From contig NZ_JAKFHA010000007.1 in NCBI RefSeq assembly GCF_021502675.1, forward strand, positions 178,351 through 242,350: a stretch of DNA of 64,000 nucleotides, written 5' to 3'. The notes below the pieces were generated by a model that had not been told where the DNA came from, searched no databases, and saw only the letters and a program-made list of their open reading frames with translations. Of this stretch, positions 8,907-15,107 are shown in pieces. A program made the position numbers and the translations under genes. Positions within the stretch are counted from its first letter, which is position 1, and each line of letters opens with the position of its first letter. This DNA comes from Yinghuangia soli. GTDB taxonomy: Bacteria > Actinomycetota > Actinomycetes > Streptomycetales > Streptomycetaceae.

Positions 8907-9299
8907 TCAGTCGGTGGCGAGGAACCAGCCGACGGTGACCCGGCGGGCCCCGCCGCGGTCCGCTATCACGACCTCGCCGGAACCGGGCCGGGGCAGCGGG
9001 AGCGTGCCGCCGTACGGCAGCGGGCGGCGCTCGCCGTCGTCCAGGAACACCTCGGCGACCGGGGCGTCCTGCGAGCCGCGCAGCCAGCCGACCTGCCAGC
9101 CGCCGGACTGGTCGCAGCGGAACTCCAGGTGCACGCGCGACACGAACAGCCAGTCGGCAGGGGTGACCAGGTGGCAGCGGGCCGCATCGCGGCCGACCGC
9201 GAGCACGGCGCCCGGGCGGCTCGGCGCACTCGCCATGAGCATGGCGACGGTCGCCGCGTCGTCGTCCCCCGAGGTGGAGGCCATATTCAGATCGAGCAC
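8907..9299 (-). CDS. Small FHA-domain protein
   Basis: 130 residues from GTG 9299, which is preceded by GGGAGGGGAAG at good spacing. The alternative ATG at 9284 has no ribosome site. The start is also supported by alignment with the upstream paralogue: MLDLNMASTS against MLELILTAAT. A forkhead-associated fold is indicated by VGRDAARCHL and FVSRVHLEF, which carry the Gly-Arg and Ser-Arg-x-His positions that contact phosphothreonine in this family. It lacks the C-terminal HTH of its neighbour. A 10-bp tandem array lies about 30 bp upstream. It sits with a PP2C phosphatase and an FHA-HTH gene, suggesting phospho-dependent signalling. Confidence 0.85.
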   Translation of the reverse strand: MLDLNMASTSGDDDAATVAMLMASAPSRPGAVLAVGRDAARCHLVTPADWLFVSRVHLEFRCDQSGGWQVGWLRGSQDAPVAEVFLDDGERRPLPYGGTLPLPRPGSGEVVIADRGGARRVTVGWFLATD

Positions 9300-9330
9300 C
9301 GGTTTCTTCCCCTCCCGGACAACCCCGAGC

Positions 9331-9388
9331 GATCCTGCGTGATCCCGAGTGATCTTGCGTGATCCTGCCTGATCCTGCGTGGTCCTGA
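9331..9388. repeat. 10-bp tandem repeat (GATCCTGCGT-like), about 6 units
   Basis: Exact 10-bp phasing of GATCCTGCGT, GATCCCGAGT, GATCTTGCGT, GATCCTGCCT, GATCCTGCGT and a partial GGTCCTGA. It lies wholly in the 101-bp spacer between two FHA genes, directly before the Shine-Dalgarno of the downstream one. Confidence 0.9.
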
Positions 9389-9400
9389 TGCCGCGGCGGG

Positions 9401-10228
9401 TCAGGACCCGTTGCTGCGGCGCGGCGGCTGCCCGCCGCAGGGGCAGCTCCCCTGCCCCGCTATGCCGTGCGTGACGGCGGTCTGCGCAATGAGGTCCCAG
9501 CCGCCGTGCACGTGGCGCACGGTGTCCAGGTAGTTCGGGCCGAGGAGTTCGTTGAGCTCGGGGCACAGGCCCGAGCTGTAGAACTCCCGGCGCAGCTTCG
9601 TCTTGCAGCGCTCCACGGTGGCCGCGGACAGGTGCAGCAGGTCGCACAGTTCGCGGGTGGACTTGGCGCGCTTGACCTGGCGGCCGTGGATCCAGTCGCA
9701 GGACATCGCGGTCAGCACCTCGACCTCGGTGTCGGACAACCGGTTCTGCAGGACGAACGGCGCGACGTCCTGGGTGGGCGGCACGCCGACGTCCGGCTCG
9801 GTGGGCTCGTCGCCGACCAGCCGCGGCAGCGACAGGCTCCAGGCCACGATCACCCGGCGCCGCCGGGCCAGGTCGCTGATCACGATGCGGCCGGCCCGCT
9901 GCCCGCCGAGCGGCAGCGTGGCGCCGTACGGCACCGGTTCCGAGACGCCCTCGCGGTCGATCTGCACGAGCGCGACCGGGCGCGTGTGCGAGCCCTGCAG
10001 CCACTCGACGGTCCAGCGCCGCTCGTCGGTGAACACGAATTCCAGGTGGATGCGCGAGACGAAACGCCAGTCCTTGGGGGTGGCCAGCGCGCAGCGCGAC
10101 GGGTCCCGGCCCACCCCGAGCCGTTGTCCCGGCTCGCTGGGCATCTTCACCGTGCGCGACCTGGGCAGGTCGACGTCGCGCTGGTCAGCGTCGTCCGACG
10201 TCGCCGCGGTGAGGATCAGTTCGAGCAT
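9401..10228 (-). CDS. FHA domain plus helix-turn-helix regulator
   Basis: About 275 residues. The N-terminal FHA domain (about 30-125) shows VGRDPSRCAL and FVSRIHLEF. The middle and C-terminal part contains a LuxR/sigma4-like HTH, roughly STRELCDLLHLSAATVERC, after LSDTEVEVLTAMSCDWIHG. The protein ends with a short Cys-containing tail (SCPCGG). It is probably a cytosolic DNA-binding protein whose activity depends on a phosphothreonine partner. Start MLELILTAATS at 10228 is preferred; ATG 10234 is 2 codons longer. Its N-terminal half is paralogous to the FHA gene downstream (8907-9299), so the pair likely arose by duplication. Confidence 0.85.
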   Translation of the reverse strand: MLELILTAATSDDADQRDVDLPRSRTVKMPSEPGQRLGVGRDPSRCALATPKDWRFVSRIHLEFVFTDERRWTVEWLQGSHTRPVALVQIDREGVSEPVPYGATLPLGGQRAGRIVISDLARRRRVIVAWSLSLPRLVGDEPTEPDVGVPPTQDVAPFVLQNRLSDTEVEVLTAMSCDWIHGRQVKRAKSTRELCDLLHLSAATVERCKTKLRREFYSSGLCPELNELLGPNYLDTVRHVHGGWDLIAQTAVTHGIAGQGSCPCGGQPPRRSNGS

Positions 10229-10297
10229 CGCCATCCGTCCGGTATCGGCCCCTTGTGGGGGCGCCTCGTGCGCAAGGTCGCGGTCCGACCGTACGAC

Positions 10298-11734
10298 CTA
10301 GTGGGTCGCGGGGGAATCCTCGGGTCCCTCGCCGGTCCTCGCGCGCGGTGGCGCGGCCGCCGCGTTGGCGACCGGCAGCGCCTCGCATTCGATGACCACC
10401 GCGGTGGCATCGTCGTCGCCGCTCTGGACCGCGGTGACGGTCAGCGTGGTGGCGGCGTGGAACGGGTCCCCGTGGATCAGGTCGGCGACGGTCTCGTCGG
10501 CGAGGTGCCCCACGCCGTCCGTCGCCAGGACCACCCGGTCGCCCGGGTGGAGTTCGATGCGCTGCAGTTCCGGGTCGGGCTGCTGCGAGCCGCCGAGCGG
10601 CGTCGAGGTGAGCAGCCATGGGCGGCCGAGGTCCGCGGCGTTGCCCTGCTCGGTGAGCCGGAACGCGGCACCGCCGCGGACCAGCCAGCACACGCTGTCG
10701 CCGCAGCCGGCCAGGTGCAGCCGGCCTTCCTGGACCACCGCGGCGACCACGGTGGTGCGCATGCCTTCGTACGTCTGGCCGTGGCCGTGCCGGCGGACCG
10801 CGAGGTCGGCGACCGCGATCGCGGCGCGCAGCCGGTCGCTCCAGCCCGCGGAGAGGTCCGCGGCGGCCAGGTCGGCGACCAGGGTGCGGCACGCGACGTC
10901 GGCGGCGTACCAGCCCGAGGGGTGGCCGCCGAGGCCGTCGGCGACCACGAAGACGCTGCCCGTGGCGGCGTACCGGTCGTCGTTGTCCCGGGCGGTCAAC
11001 TCGGTTCCGAGCCCCAGGCGTTCGCGGCGCACCGCGCGGCGGCGGCCGGGATGCGAGGCGGCCGACCAGGCGGACGCCTGGACTTCGACGTCCGCGCCGC
11101 CGGGGCGGGCGTCCTGGTCGCGGCGGCGCGCGACGCTGTCGGTGCGCGAGGTGGCCTCGATGTCGCCCTCCGGTTCGGCAGCAGGGGGTGCGGGTGGTGC
11201 GGCAGGCGGTGCGACGGGGGGCGCGGCGGGAGGTGCGGCCGCGGGCGGCGCGGGCGGCGCCGCGACGGGTTCGGGCGGCGGCGGGACGGCCGGCGGGTCC
11301 GCGGGCAGGGCCCGGACGGACGGCACCGTCGCGTCGTACTCGGGGGGCGGCGGCGGGGCGGGCGCCGCCGGGGTGGCGCGCGGTGCGGGCTCGTGCGCGT
11401 GCGCGGCGGCGGGTGCACCCGGCGCGTCGGCCAGGTCGTCGAAGTCGAGATACAGGTCGGCGAACATGTCGTCGCCCGCACCGGGTCCGGGATCGGCGGC
11501 CGCTGCCGCCGGCGGCCGGCGGTGCGGGTCGCCGGGCTGCGCGTCGTCCGGCGCGCCGCGGCCGTCGGCCCGCAACTCGTCCTGCCGGAGGGTGCGTTCG
11601 AACCCGGCGGGGGTGGGCGTGTCGTACCGCTCCCCCGGCAGGGACGCACGCCCGGGCGCACGGTCACCGGACGGTGATCCGCCGCGGGCCGACACGGCCC
11701 CCTCCCGGCGGATGGAGTCCCCTCTGCCCCTCAT
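10298..11734 (-). CDS. PP2C-type Ser/Thr protein phosphatase with Ala/Pro-rich N-terminus
   Basis: About 478 residues. The C-terminal 240 residues are a PPM/PP2C phosphatase: ARDNDDRY (equivalent of the NED motif), VVADGLGGHPSGWYAAD, a CGDSVCWLVRGG strand and LATDGVGHLAD hold the metal-binding aspartates. The first half is low complexity: a Pro/Ala tract with PPAPPAAPP-type repeats (about 11160-11300) after an acidic MFADLYLDFDDLAD segment. The start at ATG 11734 has GAGGCA close upstream but is uncertain; frames open to 11968 exist. It probably reverses Ser/Thr kinase signals read by the neighbouring FHA proteins. No kinase gene is in the window. Confidence 0.88.
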   Translation of the reverse strand: MRGRGDSIRREGAVSARGGSPSGDRAPGRASLPGERYDTPTPAGFERTLRQDELRADGRGAPDDAQPGDPHRRPPAAAAADPGPGAGDDMFADLYLDFDDLADAPGAPAAAHAHEPAPRATPAAPAPPPPPEYDATVPSVRALPADPPAVPPPPEPVAAPPAPPAAAPPAAPPVAPPAAPPAPPAAEPEGDIEATSRTDSVARRRDQDARPGGADVEVQASAWSAASHPGRRRAVRRERLGLGTELTARDNDDRYAATGSVFVVADGLGGHPSGWYAADVACRTLVADLAAADLSAGWSDRLRAAIAVADLAVRRHGHGQTYEGMRTTVVAAVVQEGRLHLAGCGDSVCWLVRGGAAFRLTEQGNAADLGRPWLLTSTPLGGSQQPDPELQRIELHPGDRVVLATDGVGHLADETVADLIHGDPFHAATTLTVTAVQSGDDDATAVVIECEALPVANAAAAPPRARTGEGPEDSPATH

Positions 11735-11942
11735 CTGCCTCACGCTCCACGAGGTCGGCCCGGAACGGCTTCCGGTGCGCCGGTCGAAACGGTGCCACCA
11801 GCATCGCGCCTGCGGGCGAAGCTTGGCACGGATCCACCCCTGCGAGTTCGATTGTTCCGCATGCGGCCGGTCTCCGGCACCGTGATCAAGTACTGCCGGT
11901 GGCAAACCCGTGAGCGGCGCCGGACCTTCCCGATTCGGGAAT

Positions 11943-12440
11943 TCACCCGAGAATGTCGCGGATGTCACCCCCGGGCTCGGGTCCGGGCTTTGGCTCCGGC
12001 GCCGGCGCCGGCTCTGGCGTGTAGACCGGCTCCGGGGCCGGCACGGCGGTCGGCGGCGTGTTGACCAGCACCGCGAACGCCGTGGGCGGCTTCGTCGAGT
12101 TGACCGCCAACTCGAATCCGGTCCGCGGGTCGACGCAGACCAAGGCCGCCGTACCGGTGTCCTGGTGCGCAGCGAAGTACGTAACGTCCCAATGCAGTTC
12201 GGCGACCCGGTCGTGCAGCCGGGTGAGCAGCCCGATGTGTTCGCGGACCGGGACGCCCATGACCTGGGCGCCCGCGGTGTAAGCCCGCACGTCCGGATCG
12301 CTGGTCCCGTCCGGCCGGGTACAGGGCGCGCCGACCATGCCGCGCCAGACCGGTTCGCGGCCCGGCCCGAGCACTTCGCCGACGAAGTCGACCAGGGGCC
12401 GCGCGTCGGCGGCTATTTCCTCCTCGCTCATGGTCCGCAT
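11943..12440 (-). CDS. Companion protein of the DUF1023 hydrolase, unknown function
   Basis: 165 residues from ATG 12440 (MRTMSEEEIAADARPLVDF), preceded by GAGGAGGG at 8 nt. A frame beginning at 12488 would overlap the upstream gene. It has no signal peptide or membrane span. A compact alpha/beta-looking body to about residue 125 is followed by a Pro-Glu-Pro tail (PAPEPVYTPEPAPAPEPKPG) and GGDIRDILG. It is the last gene of a three-gene unit after a WXG-like/LEA-like protein and a DUF1023 hydrolase. Its position and size would fit an immunity or chaperone role, but nothing in the sequence proves it. Confidence 0.8.
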   Translation of the reverse strand: MRTMSEEEIAADARPLVDFVGEVLGPGREPVWRGMVGAPCTRPDGTSDPDVRAYTAGAQVMGVPVREHIGLLTRLHDRVAELHWDVTYFAAHQDTGTAALVCVDPRTGFELAVNSTKPPTAFAVLVNTPPTAVPAPEPVYTPEPAPAPEPKPGPEPGGDIRDILG

Positions 12441-12477
12441 GGCGCAATCCCTCCTCGGTGTTCCGTCGGGCGGGGCC

Positions 12478-14187
12478 TCATCGTGCACCCGCGGGTGCCG
12501 TGCCGTGGTTCAAGGTGACGTCCTGGTAGTTTCCGACCGTGATGGCGCCGATGTTCCGGACGCTTTCGCTGCCCGGGTCCCAGTAGTTGCTGTGTCCGCT
12601 CGTGTCGACGTCGAACCGGTTGGCGCCGTAATCGACGTCCTGCGGGGCCGCACCCATCGGATACGCGCCCGGGATGGCCGGGGCGCCCGGGATGGGAGCG
12701 TAGGCGGCGGCCTCGGCGGCCTGCGGCAGGCGGGCCACGTAGTCGTCCGACGCGGCACCGGACCAGACATGCCCGTTCTGCATGTTCATCTGCGAGACGT
12801 GCGAGGTGTTGGTACCGGGCGAGCCGACCACCACGATGTCGTCGGCGTCCAGCGTGTGCTGCGAGGCGGCGCTGCCGACGACGGCCGAGCCGTAGCTGTG
12901 CCCGACCACGGTGAGCCGGTCCCGGTCGCCTTCGTGGGTGGTCCGGAGGGTGTCCACGAACTGGTCGAGTGCGGGGGCGCCGGCCTCGGCGCGGCCGGTG
13001 CCCATGACGCTGGTGTTGGGCTGCTCCAGGGCCAGTTCGGGCGCGTCGTAGCCGAGCCAGGTCACCACGGCCACGTCGTCCGCGGCCGGGGTCTGCATGT
13101 CGGCGGCGAACTGCAGGCGGCGGGCCTTGTCGATCTCGCCGCTGATCTCCTCGATGTCGGTGTTGAGGCCGGGGACTTGCACGGCGGTGTTCGCCGCGGT
13201 GTCCGGATTGCCCACGGCCACCGCCCACTTGCCGTCGCCGCTGGTGTCGATGTCGATCAGGTAGATGGGCTTCGCATCGCCTTCGCGGTCCGACGCCTGG
13301 TCCGTCAGTTGGGTATCCAGTTTCCGCAGCGCGGCGAGAGTCCGCCGCTCCTGCGGGTCGAGCGTGGCCTCCCGGCGCTGCAGGTCGGCGAGTTCGAGCG
13401 CCATGGTGGTCCGGTTGGCCTCGTCGCGGGCCACCACGGGGACGCCGTTGAGGCCGCCGACCCGGTCCGGGTACGCCTGGAGATAAGCGAGTTGGACGTT
13501 GGGCGACTGGGCCCGCCACCACGCGGAGACCGCTTTCGGGTCGCTGCCCGCGGGCGGGATGTCGCTCGCGTCCAGGCCGCCGGCCAGGTCGACGGCGAGT
13601 TTGCCGTCCGCCTGGATCCGGGCCAGCCGCGCGGCCCCGTCGGGTCCGCTGACGTCGAGCGCGGTGGCCTGCGCGAACACCCGCAGGGCCTGCGCCGCGG
13701 AGGTGTCCGCGTTGGTGGCCCGCACGAGTGCGCCGAGGATCTCGAAGCTGATCGCCGTGCCGCGGTCGGATTTGCGGGTCTCGGCGGCCTCGGCCTCGGC
13801 CGGGTCGGTGCCCGCCGGGGTTTGCTCCGGGGGCCAGCTGACCGATCCGTCGTCGCCGATGACGAAGCCCTCGGACTTGGCCGCGGTCAGCGTGGCGCGC
13901 AACTGGTTCTGGGCGGCCACGAACTCTTCGGTGGCCGAGTCGACCGCCACCACCATGTTGCGGACCTCGGCCGAGGCGACTTCCATCAGGCGTCCGGCGG
14001 TGTCGATGGCCGGCTTCGAGGCGGCGTTCGCGGTGCCTTCCCAGTACGACCGCGACGCCGTGGTCACGACGGTGGTCCGGTACTGGCCTTCCAGGGCTTC
14101 GAGTTTCTGCGCGAGGCGGCCGAGCGATGCCGACGCCTCACGCAGACCGCCGAAGGACGCATCGCGCAATTGCGGAACCGTGACCAT
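12478..14187 (-). CDS. DUF1023-type alpha/beta hydrolase with helical N-terminus
   Basis: 569 residues. The N-terminal about 120 residues are Ala-rich helices (VPQLRDASFGGLREASASL) that resemble WXG100/ESX-like four-helix segments. The C-terminal part is an alpha/beta hydrolase of the DUF1023 type: nucleophile elbow GHSYG with Ser431, a following VVVGSPGT strand, and a GHSNYW motif with His532. The gene starts 3 nt after the stop of the upstream repeat protein and is followed by a 165-residue gene, so the three are translationally linked. No Sec signal is present. DUF1023 proteins are widespread in actinomycetes with poorly known substrates. Lipase, esterase or peptidase activity is possible. 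Confidence 0.88.
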   Translation of the reverse strand: MVTVPQLRDASFGGLREASASLGRLAQKLEALEGQYRTTVVTTASRSYWEGTANAASKPAIDTAGRLMEVASAEVRNMVVAVDSATEEFVAAQNQLRATLTAAKSEGFVIGDDGSVSWPPEQTPAGTDPAEAEAAETRKSDRGTAISFEILGALVRATNADTSAAQALRVFAQATALDVSGPDGAARLARIQADGKLAVDLAGGLDASDIPPAGSDPKAVSAWWRAQSPNVQLAYLQAYPDRVGGLNGVPVVARDEANRTTMALELADLQRREATLDPQERRTLAALRKLDTQLTDQASDREGDAKPIYLIDIDTSGDGKWAVAVGNPDTAANTAVQVPGLNTDIEEISGEIDKARRLQFAADMQTPAADDVAVVTWLGYDAPELALEQPNTSVMGTGRAEAGAPALDQFVDTLRTTHEGDRDRLTVVGHSYGSAVVGSAASQHTLDADDIVVVGSPGTNTSHVSQMNMQNGHVWSGAASDDYVARLPQAAEAAAYAPIPGAPAIPGAYPMGAAPQDVDYGANRFDVDTSGHSNYWDPGSESVRNIGAITVGNYQDVTLNHGTAPAGAR

Positions 14188-14190
14188 GCG

Positions 14191-14961
14191 CTATCCCCCG
14201 AATTCCTCGGCTATCCGGATGTCCTGCTGCGCATATCCCGAGGAGTTGGCGGCCAAGGTGTCGGAGATCCGGCGGACTTCCGCGGTGACCTTGTCCAGCT
14301 GCGTGCCCCACGTCTCGGTGCAGCCGGTGAGCGCGCCGGCGACTTCCCAGCCGGGCAGGCCGGGGGCGGTGCCCGCTTCCCGCATCGTTCCTGCCGTGGG
14401 CCGCAGTTCCTCGGCGACGGTGCCCGCGGCTCCGGAGATCGCCCGCAGGTCCTCCGGGGACACCTTGAAGGAGTCCGAGGCCCCGCCCGGATTGGGCGCC
14501 GAGAGGTCCGGCTGCTTCTGGTACGACGGCGTCGAAGGCCCCGGCGTGACCGCTTCCTTGATCTCGTCGTACGGGTCGCGGATCGCGTCCCAGGTGTCGG
14601 CGGCCTTGTCCGCCAGGTATTCGCCGGCCTCGGTGGCCTTGTCGGCGATGTACTCCCCCGCGTCCGTGGCTTTGTCGGCGATGTACTCGCCGGCGTCGAC
14701 GGCCTTGTCGGCCAGGTACTCGCCGGCCTCCACGGTCTTGTCGGCGATGTACTCCCCCGCCTCGACGGCCTTGTCCGCGACGTACTCGCCGGCATCCGCG
14801 GCCTTGTCGGCCAGGTACTCCCCCGCGGCAACGGTCTGGTCGACCGCCTCGTCCACTTTTCCGGCGACGTATTCGCCGGCATCGGTGACCCCGTCGACCA
14901 CCGCGTCCCGCGCATCGCCCAATGCGTCCAACGGATTGGGCAGGTCGATATCGAATCCCAA
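14191..14961 (-). CDS. WXG-like protein with seven 11-residue LEA-type repeats
   Basis: 256 residues from a TTG start at 14961, with GGGGAG 5 nt upstream. Residues 46-122 are seven uninterrupted 11-mers of the form AGEY(L/I/V)ADKA(x)(D/E), with a diverged copy just before. This is the amphipathic 11-residue period typical of group-3 LEA proteins. Residues about 165-256 (VSPEDLRAISGAAG to AEEFGG) form a helical region with a central Trp-Gly (ETWGTQLDK), similar to the WXG100/EsxA class. No signal peptide or TM. It is first in a tight unit with the DUF1023 hydrolase, so it may be a secreted or chaperone-like partner. The export route is not shown by the sequence. Confidence 0.85.
   Translation of the reverse strand: MGFDIDLPNPLDALGDARDAVVDGVTDAGEYVAGKVDEAVDQTVAAGEYLADKAADAGEYVADKAVEAGEYIADKTVEAGEYLADKAVDAGEYIADKATDAGEYIADKATEAGEYLADKAADTWDAIRDPYDEIKEAVTPGPSTPSYQKQPDLSAPNPGGASDSFKVSPEDLRAISGAAGTVAEELRPTAGTMREAGTAPGLPGWEVAGALTGCTETWGTQLDKVTAEVRRISDTLAANSSGYAQQDIRIAEEFGG
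14596..14826 (-). repeat. 33-bp tandem repeat, 7 units, inside the LEA-like gene
   Basis: Seven 33-bp units (231 bp) encode the 11-residue repeats. Units keep the GAGTAC (Glu-Tyr) and GACAAG (Asp-Lys) codons but vary at hydrophobic and linker positions, so the repeat is under protein-level constraint and not a recent perfect slippage product. Confidence 0.9.
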
Positions 14962-15041
14962 GGCTGCTCCCCGTGGCGCCGATCGGATTTCGCGTCACCG
15001 TAGCAGCGCATTTCCGGCGCCGGAAAGAGCCGGAAAACACA

Positions 15042-15074
15042 AAGCGCCCCGGACCGGTGAGGTCCGGGGCGCTT
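15042..15074 (-). terminator. Terminator after ilvC
   Basis: Perfect 13-bp stem, AAGCGCCCCGGAC with GTCCGGGGCGCTT, and a 7-nt loop, 33 bp beyond the ilvC stop. It separates the ilv operon from the TTG-initiated repeat protein downstream. Confidence 0.85.
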
Positions 15075-15107
15075 CGGGGAAGCTGCGGCGCGGGGCCGGC
15101 GGGCGGC

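What the first reader, a model, noticed from the sequence alone, without database searches (positions are those of the whole stretch)
8907..14961. Six-gene accessory block (LEA-like/WXG protein, DUF1023 hydrolase, companion, PP2C, two FHA proteins) inserted between ilvC and serA
In Streptomyces ilvC and serA are normally adjacent, but here six same-strand genes separate them. Three are tightly linked: a protein with seven 11-residue AGEYxADKAxD repeats plus a WXG-like domain, a DUF1023 alpha/beta hydrolase and a 165-residue partner. The other three are phosphothreonine-signalling parts: a PP2C phosphatase, an FHA-HTH regulator and a small FHA protein. A secreted or contact-dependent enzyme with a partner protein under phosphorylation control would be a new combination. 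The unit has no kinase, so an outside kinase must act on it. It is the best candidate for an undescribed system in this window.
Basis: partly seen in the sequence, partly recalled or inferred. Interest (0 to 1): 0.75.

Follow-up and report, generated by a model that had tools for sequence, protein, structure and literature searches.

The report
Type VII secreted hydrolase-partner cassette
Between two amino-acid biosynthesis genes, this soil actinomycete carries a fast-changing three-gene cassette that looks like a secreted, possibly fat-splitting enzyme with a helper for export and a protective partner, next to a separate, slow-changing set of three phosphate-signalling genes.

Summary
The six genes are real and separate ilvC from serA. 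They are two trios with different histories. Trio 1 (11943-14961) is a type VII (ESX) secretion-type cassette: an EspC/WXG100-like protein with an 11-residue amphipathic-helix extension, a hydrolase with a WXG100-like N-terminal domain and an Abhydrolase_8 (DUF1023) domain with intact triad, and a partner. The "companion" belongs to a lipoprotein family without a Pfam model; a member lies within 0.9 kb downstream of the hydrolase in 71 of 80 named loci. Its fold resembles mycobacterial LppA and a DUF4853 protein. In Yinghuangia the ilvC-locus copy lost its signal peptide and a family cysteine and has a Pro-rich tail ending IRxxLG. Trio 2 (PP2C, FHA-HTH, FHA): the FHA-HTH gene was found in 7 of 394 family genomes, in two genera, always beside serA. 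Each trio also occurs here without the other, and trio 1 evolves faster. I judge trio 1 most likely a lipase-type T7SS effector with immunity partner, analogous to (not a member of) S. aureus TslA-TilA. Phosphothreonine control is possible but unshown. DUF1023 was already recognised as an alpha/beta hydrolase; I found no paper on the T7SS-lipoprotein pairing. New variant of a known kind.

The parts
14191..14961 (-). EspC/WXG100-like T7SS co-secretion protein (256 aa, TTG start) with N-terminal 11-mer amphipathic helix
   Evidence: profile of 15 such proteins matches solved ESAT-6-like chains (best E 9.3e-7); 11 of 15 match Pfam EspC at E 0.01
14596..14826 (-). seven tandem 11-residue AGEYxADKAxD repeats
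14221..14235 (-). YAQQD, a YxxxD/E-type T7SS export motif (motif's role recalled) at the end of the WXG-like domain
   Evidence: alignment: such a motif at this place in 11 of 15 rows
12478..14187 (-). T7SS-type substrate: WXG100-like N-terminal domain (about 8-102) plus Abhydrolase_8 (DUF1023) domain; 569 aa
   Evidence: starts 3 bp after the WXG gene
12895..12897 (-). catalytic Ser431 codon (GHSYGS); with Asp482 and His532
   Evidence: all three invariant in 45 of 45 sequences and 12 of 12
11943..12440 (-). companion: signal-less member of the LppA-fold lipoprotein partner family, 165 aa
11946..11963 (-). C-terminal IRDILG motif after a Pro-rich linker
10298..11695 (-). PP2C-type Ser/Thr phosphatase with Pro-rich, poorly conserved N-terminal part (465 aa)
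11567..11599 (-). ERTLRQDELRA motif in the PP2C N-terminal part, identical in 6 of 6 PP2C sequences aligned from both genera
9401..10228 (-). FHA domain plus C-terminal HTH-like region (275 aa)
8907..9299 (-). small FHA protein (130 aa), paralogue of the FHA part of the preceding gene
15040..15076 (-). terminator-like hairpin (16 pairs) after ilvC; suggests the block has its own transcription
   Evidence: one site found; shuffles average 1.8, so not above chance by count

Best explanation
Trio 1 is a type VII secretion effector cassette. The WXG/EspC-like protein pairs with the WXG-like N-terminal domain of the hydrolase and both leave through the ESX system encoded elsewhere in the genome (shown: domains, gene order, machinery genes; inferred: pairing and export). 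The C-terminal domain is a serine hydrolase of lipase/cutinase-like fold that probably attacks membrane or envelope lipids or esters of rival or kin cells; the 11-mer amphipathic helix would help it reach membranes (inferred). The companion derives from the lipoprotein family that accompanies these hydrolases and most likely neutralises them. In this genus the ilvC-locus copy is predicted cytoplasmic and probably holds the hydrolase inactive, or escorts it, before export (inferred). The PP2C/FHA/FHA trio is a separate, conserved phosphothreonine-signalling neighbour that may or may not regulate the cassette.
For: T7SS type: hydrolase-family profile residues 7-102 match solved EsxA (E 4.5e-5) and EsxB (0.002); members match, weakly, PPE (13 of 45), WXG100 (4), WXG100_2 (4), T7SS_signal (3), EspB_PPE (2) and LXG (1) models at E 0.01; W49-x-G51 (12 of 12; W in 35 and G in 44 of 45) lies at the turn between two long predicted helices; small-partner profile matches ESAT-6-like chains. 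Machinery: EccB, EccE, mycosin and two WXG100 proteins in the own genome. In G005 and G030 a DUF1023 gene lies about 3.2 kb from eccB, in G005 between eccB and eccC with a partner-family lipoprotein gene beside it. Enzyme: triad invariant 45 of 45; model pLDDT 89.3; VIA-align's 50 rows are mostly cutinases/lipases, Z about 14 over about 200 residues, e.g. Streptomyces lipase 1jfr. Partner: homologue within 0.9 kb downstream in 71 of 80 named loci; 94 of 107 scored members have a hydrophobic N-terminal segment, 92 with a Cys. Arms-race signs: 50-61% identity of the hydrolase where neighbours are 83-99%; G001 has a second module whose hydrolase is a 96-aa remnant while its lipoprotein (201-aa ORF with lipobox) and companion are full length; three tandem partner-family lipoproteins after one hydrolase in G073. 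TslA-TilA is a proven precedent for a T7SS lipase with immunity lipoprotein (PMC10730906, abstract and passages).
Against: No activity, toxicity, secretion or binding is shown. The window strain has no match (E 0.001; assembly 96% complete) to the separate lipoprotein that G001 and G002 carry between hydrolase and companion, so its only partner found at the site is signal-less, odd for an enzyme acting outside. Ten of 91 genomes with a DUF1023 match had no EccB match, and within the own family presence of the two is not associated (66/5/2/0, p = 1; over all 120 genomes 81/10/7/22, p = 8e-11, confounded by kinship). Of 14 control genomes DUF1023 rang in Corynebacterium glutamicum and EccB in none. 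Helical profiles attract unrelated helical chains: a designed coiled coil is second (4.1e-6), dynein appears (0.005). The hydrolase domain is not more variable than the export domain (55-69% against 43-54% identity), unlike toxins that swap their C-terminal part. Foldseek's best E-values go to FrsA-type chains, not lipases, and a fold match does not give the substrate.
Confidence: 0.55

Rival explanations
1. The cassette is an exported envelope esterase/lipase for the cell's own lipid or cell-wall remodelling or for feeding; the lipoprotein family anchors, folds or activates it and is not an immunity protein.
For: Triad, lipase/cutinase-like fold; the family is very widespread (526 relatives confirmed in one capped scan); the window strain lacks a match to the surface lipoprotein of its congeners.
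Against: Fast divergence at a fixed locus, tandem lipoproteins and partner genes kept after hydrolase decay fit a toxin-immunity pair better.
Confidence: 0.3
2. One reading: one contact-dependent system in which an outside kinase, PP2C and the FHA proteins control the effector.
For: All 7 FHA-HTH carriers (of 394 family genomes) have it at this site, and 6 of the 7 also hold a T7SS-type pair next to ilvC. [quoted passage not shown] FHA residues GRD and VSRxHL kept in 7 of 7 sequences from three genomes; ERTLRQDELRA kept in 6 of 6 PP2Cs.
Against: Trio 1 without trio 2 in G073; trio 2 without trio 1 in G037; the T7SS-type pair in front of trio 2 is of another family in the second genus; different rates; gap of about 250 bp between the trios. 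Seven related genomes may be one inheritance event.
Confidence: 0.12
3. ilvC-serA is merely a tolerated insertion site in these lineages, and the two trios are unrelated passengers there.
For: Other genomes of the order hold unrelated genes there (five genes in G081; reversed order in g19); the second genus has a different T7SS-type pair and a sigma-70-family gene at the site.
Against: The ilvC-locus hydrolases of Yinghuangia and of another family (G073) form one clade (100/97), so the cassette has stayed at, or repeatedly come to, this site.
Confidence: 0.35

Closest known systems
TslA-TilA of Staphylococcus aureus (T7SSb lipase toxin and immunity lipoprotein; PMC10730906)
   Same: Serine lipase-type enzyme with Ser-Asp-His triad, a helical T7SS domain, small helical partners, a lipoprotein gene next to the enzyme part, lipoprotein copies in tandem
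   Different: Domain order is the reverse (here export domain first); lipoprotein is not DUF576; Actinomycetota; here the companion has lost its signal peptide; no toxicity shown
DUF1023 / Abhydrolase_8 (PF06259), recognised as an alpha/beta hydrolase by Zheng et al. 2005 (known to me only from reference lists)
   Same: Member of this family; Pfam match and triad
   Different: That work's content was not seen; a 2024 review mentions the family only for a lid insertion at strand beta-4 (PMC11878206, passage)
LppA of Mycobacterium tuberculosis (PDB 2v7s; PF16708) and DUF4853 protein 4mjg
   Same: Best VIA-align matches of the companion, tied: Z 9.8, rmsd 5.1 over 130 residues; Z 9.5, rmsd 3.8 over 125
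   Different: 11-12% identity; no Foldseek match at E 0.001 (best 2.7e-3, to 4mjg); no significant sequence match. That lppA/lppV lie beside DUF1023 genes in that species is recalled, not tested
Tox-ABhydrolase-1/2/3 of polymorphic toxin systems (PMC3482391, passages)
   Same: Alpha/beta hydrolases proposed as toxins, two of them lipid-acting
   Different: DUF1023 does not occur in the part of the text held; whether it belongs to one of them was not tested
T7SSc-j gene clusters with PPM phosphatases and FHA proteins (PMC11217815)
   Same: T7SS parts encoded with PP2C/PPM phosphatase and FHA proteins
   Different: There they sit with the secretion ATPase; here beside a substrate-type cassette, on another contig than eccB

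Membership tests
T7SS (ESX) substrate | N-terminal WXG/LXG-type helical hairpin | tested here: met
   Profile 7-102 to EsxA E 4.5e-5; W49-x-G51 at a helix turn; T7SS Pfam models in some members. The window protein alone scores only E 0.44
T7SS (ESX) substrate | Small WXG/EspC-like partner encoded alongside, with YxxxD/E motif (recalled) | tested here: met
   motif in 11 of 15 rows, the window's included
T7SS (ESX) substrate | Secretion machinery in the same genome | tested here: met
   EccB, EccE, mycosin, WXG100 pair; EccC and EccD of the own genome not checked
T7SS (ESX) substrate | Exported in a T7SS-dependent way | not testable with these tools
   Needs an eccC mutant
Abhydrolase_8 (PF06259, DUF1023) | Family score and catalytic Ser-Asp-His | tested here: met
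   131 bits, cut-off 20.5; triad 45 of 45
TslA-TilA | Lipase domain N-terminal, T7SS domain C-terminal | tested here: not met
   Order is the opposite
TslA-TilA | DUF576 lipoprotein as immunity protein | tested here: not met
   No DUF576 match among the families listed for 49 members at E 0.1
Toxin-immunity pair | Enzyme toxic, partner neutralises it | not testable with these tools
   Only indirect signs
LppA (PF16708) | Family sequence match or fold | tested here: inconclusive
   Fold Z 9.8, rmsd 5.1; sequence: one of 49 members at E 0.033, window protein none; the genome search rang nowhere and shows nothing
Partner lipoprotein family seen here | Homology to the downstream partner of DUF1023 genes | tested here: met
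Partner lipoprotein family seen here | Lipobox signal peptide and two conserved Cys | tested here: not met
   Window protein: no signal; first Cys kept, second (C in 46 of 49) replaced by Pro; G001a, G001b and G002 also lack signal and second Cys

The most novel reading that the evidence does not exclude
A phosphothreonine-licensed ESX lipase weapon. The companion is a lipoprotein-type inhibitor recalled to the cytoplasm, keeping the enzyme silent until export, with its IRxxLG tail as a docking tag; the PP2C/FHA trio, through the conserved ERTLRQDELRA motif and the FHA proteins, decides when the cassette (or whichever T7SS substrate occupies the site) is made or released. More widely, DUF1023 plus LppA-fold lipoprotein would be a large, unnamed antibacterial effector-immunity family across Actinomycetota.
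Probability: 0.12. Interest if true: 0.78.

Novelty: new variant of a known kind. Interest (0 to 1): 0.5.

Why it matters
Enzyme effectors of the actinobacterial (T7SSa) secretion system with a clear partner are, to my knowledge, little described. The evidence gives a simple, testable rule: WXG/EspC-like protein, Abhydrolase_8 enzyme and LppA-fold lipoprotein occur together in Streptomycetaceae, Micromonosporaceae, Pseudonocardiaceae, Thermomonosporaceae and others. It would offer a role for a large lipoprotein family without a Pfam model and a natural example of a surface partner turned cytoplasmic.

Tried and rejected
One six-gene system: rejected as the main reading because each trio stands without the other and they evolve at different rates.

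Recent acquisition by base composition: no sign of it (trio 1 genes 69.5-72.1% GC, window 72.3%; small FHA 75.3%, PP2C 78.9%).

IRDxLG as a genome-wide tag: my DNA pattern was too narrow (it misses the window's own copy); it gave two hits in seven genomes, both beside DUF1023 genes, and none for the reversed control. The looser C-terminal pattern was made after seeing the tails: 19 of 117 family proteins against 0.5% of shuffled tails and 1.9% of internal stretches; post hoc.

A general T7SS link by co-occurrence: significant over 120 genomes, absent within the family, so not used; genomes that the tool did not list were taken as negatives by elimination. FHA-part-only matches (E 1e-17 to 1e-23) to the FHA-HTH protein in eight genomes of genus g9 were not followed. 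Weak fold similarity of the companion to Eag effector chaperones (EagT6, SciW; Z 4.9-6.4) is kept only as an idea. LppA by sequence: nothing firm. A reciprocal swap between loci (second genus: DUF1023 in the ESX locus, DUF6571-type at ilvC; Yinghuangia the reverse) was looked at: the 718-aa and 720-aa proteins are 26% identical over 734 columns (E 5e-30), so related, not a recent swap. Promoter scan: none found, method unsuited.

Limits of counts: the 80 named loci were fetched because they hold DUF1023, so they show partner given hydrolase, not the reverse. My gene caller missed real genes (e.g. the DUF1023 gene in L066 and L084, found by tblastn), so neighbour counts are lower bounds: a small same-strand gene within 60 bp upstream in 48 of 74 called loci. 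One search counted 55 of 71 with a strict lipobox pattern; several of its 'no-lipobox' rows show one by eye. Ten of 117 partner hits could not be scored, and some of its 13 'without' rows are fragments, second ORFs or masked stretches. The 15 rows were chosen by me near DUF1023 or DUF6571-type genes, many because they already matched the window's WXG protein.

Papers: PMC10730906 and PMC11217815 seen as abstract and passages; PMC3482391, PMC8467076, PMC11878206, PMC9966272 and PMC8986115 as passages found by terms (and the start of their abstracts in listings); PMC13152386 only as a search listing; Zheng et al. 2005 only as a reference in two lists. Not-in-print statements rest on searches, 89 of an open-access library only; one DUF1023 paper (PMC3828140) and several were not opened.
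Full report
What is there. The window lies in a 9.7-Mb actinomycete genome (G000). Its genus is Yinghuangia: the congener G001 has contigs of the same lengths as named Yinghuangia seranimata records. Between ilvC and serA lie six minus-strand genes at the coordinates given. Spacing splits them in two: the first three are separated by 3 and 37 bp; then come about 250 bp without a gene; then PP2C, FHA-HTH and FHA with 69 and 101 bp between them. A long hairpin follows ilvC at 15076-15040, although the number of terminator-like sites is not above chance.

The insertion. Two other g4 genomes have the genes on different contigs.

Two trios, two histories. In G001 and G002 the order is ilvC, WXG protein, hydrolase, lipoprotein, companion, PP2C, FHA-HTH, FHA, serA. 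In g4 the WXG-hydrolase-companion part is replaced by a different T7SS-type pair (126 aa, and 718 aa matching DUF6571) and a small sigma-70-family factor, followed by the same PP2C, FHA-HTH (two copies) and FHA. G037 lacks the T7SS-type pair there: no match to either protein on its ilvC contig, which runs from ilvC through the sigma gene into PP2C. G073, of another family, has WXG, hydrolase, a partner lipoprotein and an unassigned 149-aa ORF between ilvC and serA but no PP2C/FHA. FHA-HTH occurs at E 1e-30 in 7 of 394 family genomes, all in these two genera. Identities in the genus: hydrolase 50-61%, companion 55-63%; FHA-HTH 90-92%, FHA 83-86%, PP2C catalytic part 91-92%; ilvE, leuB, serA, ilvC, ilvN and ilvB 89-99%. 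The ilvC-locus hydrolases of Yinghuangia and G073 form one clade (100/97) apart from the other copies in the same genomes that were in the tree.

The hydrolase. PF06259 131 bits. Ser431, Asp482 and His532 are invariant in 45 of 45 aligned relatives. The AlphaFold2 model has mean pLDDT 89.3, with helices 13-46 and 52-105 and a C-terminal alpha/beta fold. Foldseek's best E-values go to FrsA-type chains (5.8e-6) followed by cutinases and esterases; the VIA-align second look puts residues 303-568 mostly with cutinases and lipases, Z about 14 over about 200 residues at 11-16% identity. This is a superfamily resemblance and does not name the substrate. The family profile matches EsxA and EsxB chains at residues 7-102 (E 4.5e-5 and 0.002; dynein, a coiled-coil chain, comes next at 0.005), and some members match T7SS substrate models. 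W49 is kept in 35 and G51 in 44 of 45.

The WXG protein. Its C-terminal part aligns with 14 small proteins encoded near DUF1023 or DUF6571-type genes; 11 of 15 match EspC and 7 of 15 WXG100 at E 0.01; the profile matches ESAT-6-like chains down to 9.3e-7, with a designed coiled coil second at 4.1e-6. 11 of 15 carry YxxxD/E near the end (the motif's meaning is recalled). The N-terminal 11-mer repeats form an 11/3 amphipathic helix, as in apolipoproteins and synuclein, which appear among weak Pfam matches. The G001 and G002 orthologues have quite different N-terminal repeats, so this part changes fast. Membrane binding is inferred.

The companion. An HMM from five ilvC-locus companions finds 44 ORFs (its own five included) at E 1e-3 among 8148 ORFs of the loci held at that point, most of them just downstream of DUF1023 genes; iterating gives 117. 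In 71 of 80 named loci a member lies within 0.9 kb downstream of the hydrolase. 94 of 107 scored members have an N-terminal hydrophobic segment, 92 of these with a cysteine. No Pfam model matches them meaningfully (49 scanned). The companion's model (pLDDT 88.9) has no Foldseek match at E 0.001, but the VIA-align second look places it with LppA of M. tuberculosis (Z 9.8, rmsd 5.1) and a DUF4853 protein (Z 9.5, rmsd 3.8). The four Yinghuangia ilvC-locus companions lack a signal peptide, have lost the second family cysteine (two also the first) and end in a Pro-rich stretch and IRxxLG. The same tail, IRDxLG or VRDVLG, ends four other small proteins downstream of DUF1023 genes in the genus, of which three show a hydrophobic segment upstream by eye, so the tail itself is not tied to the cytoplasm. 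G001 and G002 carry an extra lipoprotein between hydrolase and companion; the window genome has no match to it.

T7SS setting. EccB, EccE, mycosin and a WXG100 pair are in the own genome. In G005 and G030 a DUF1023 gene is about 3.2 kb from eccB. Against a strict link: 10 of 91 genomes with DUF1023 had no EccB match, within the family there is no association, and of 14 control genomes DUF1023 rang in C. glutamicum but EccB in none.

Mechanism. Shown: domains, order, triad, loss of the signal peptide, rates. Inferred: pairing and export with the WXG protein, lipid or ester substrate, inhibition by the companion. For toxin-immunity: speed of divergence; in G001 a second module in which the hydrolase is a 96-aa remnant and the WXG protein is damaged at its end while a 201-aa lipoprotein ORF with lipobox and a full companion remain; three tandem lipoproteins after one hydrolase in G073; the TslA-TilA precedent. 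Against: no experiment, and a cytoplasmic-type partner only in this strain. I put toxin-immunity at 0.55 and an envelope-remodelling enzyme at 0.3.

PP2C/FHA. Six of six PP2Cs aligned share ERTLRQDELRA and a DLYLDF-containing motif inside an otherwise poorly alignable N-terminal region. FHA residues GRD and VSRxHL are kept in seven of seven FHA sequences from three genomes; the usual Asn-Gly (recalled) is not seen. A phosphothreonine switch is plausible, but nothing ties it to the cassette except position in two genera. T7SSc-j clusters often encode kinases, phosphatases and FHA proteins (PMC11217815), which keeps the idea alive.

Novelty. That DUF1023 is an alpha/beta hydrolase is known (Zheng et al. 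2005, seen only as a reference). The library holds four papers with DUF1023 and six with Abhydrolase_8 or PF06259. In the four that I opened the mentions are a table entry for a hydrolase of unknown function, a lid-insertion remark, an introductory citation and a figure legend. Searches aimed at a link with T7SS or the lipoproteins listed no paper whose title or abstract start describes it. I call it a new variant of a known kind: a T7SS enzyme effector with partner.

Noticed in passing
L044:13288-15331 (G001): Second copy of the hydrolase module between ilvC and serA: hydrolase reduced to a 96-aa remnant, WXG protein damaged at its end, lipoprotein and companion full length.
   Followed up: partly
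L083:8491-10342 (G000 contig 11): A further DUF1023 gene of the window's genome is in pieces, followed by a partner-like protein with lipobox-like start ending IRDALG.
   Followed up: no
L054:11224-13063 (G073): Three tandem lipoproteins of the partner family follow one hydrolase, like an immunity array.
   Followed up: partly
L057:5355-8881 (G030) and L056 (G005): In genus g4 the ilvC-serA site holds a WXG-DUF6571-type pair and a small sigma-70-family factor instead of the hydrolase cassette.
   Followed up: partly
L082:1262-3870 (G000 contig 51): A WXG-like gene and a 720-aa protein related to the g4 718-aa protein lie in the window genome's own ESX locus.
   Followed up: partly
window:11567-11599: ERTLRQDELRA and a DLYLDF motif are strictly conserved in the otherwise variable N-terminal part of PP2C; candidate phosphothreonine or docking motif.
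   Followed up: partly
Streptomyces partner proteins, e.g. L133, L154, L162 (C-terminal end): Another recurrent C-terminal tail, RPN[IV]R-S-[PD]-FWS or DPYWS, after a linker, reminiscent of the IRDILG tail.
   Followed up: no
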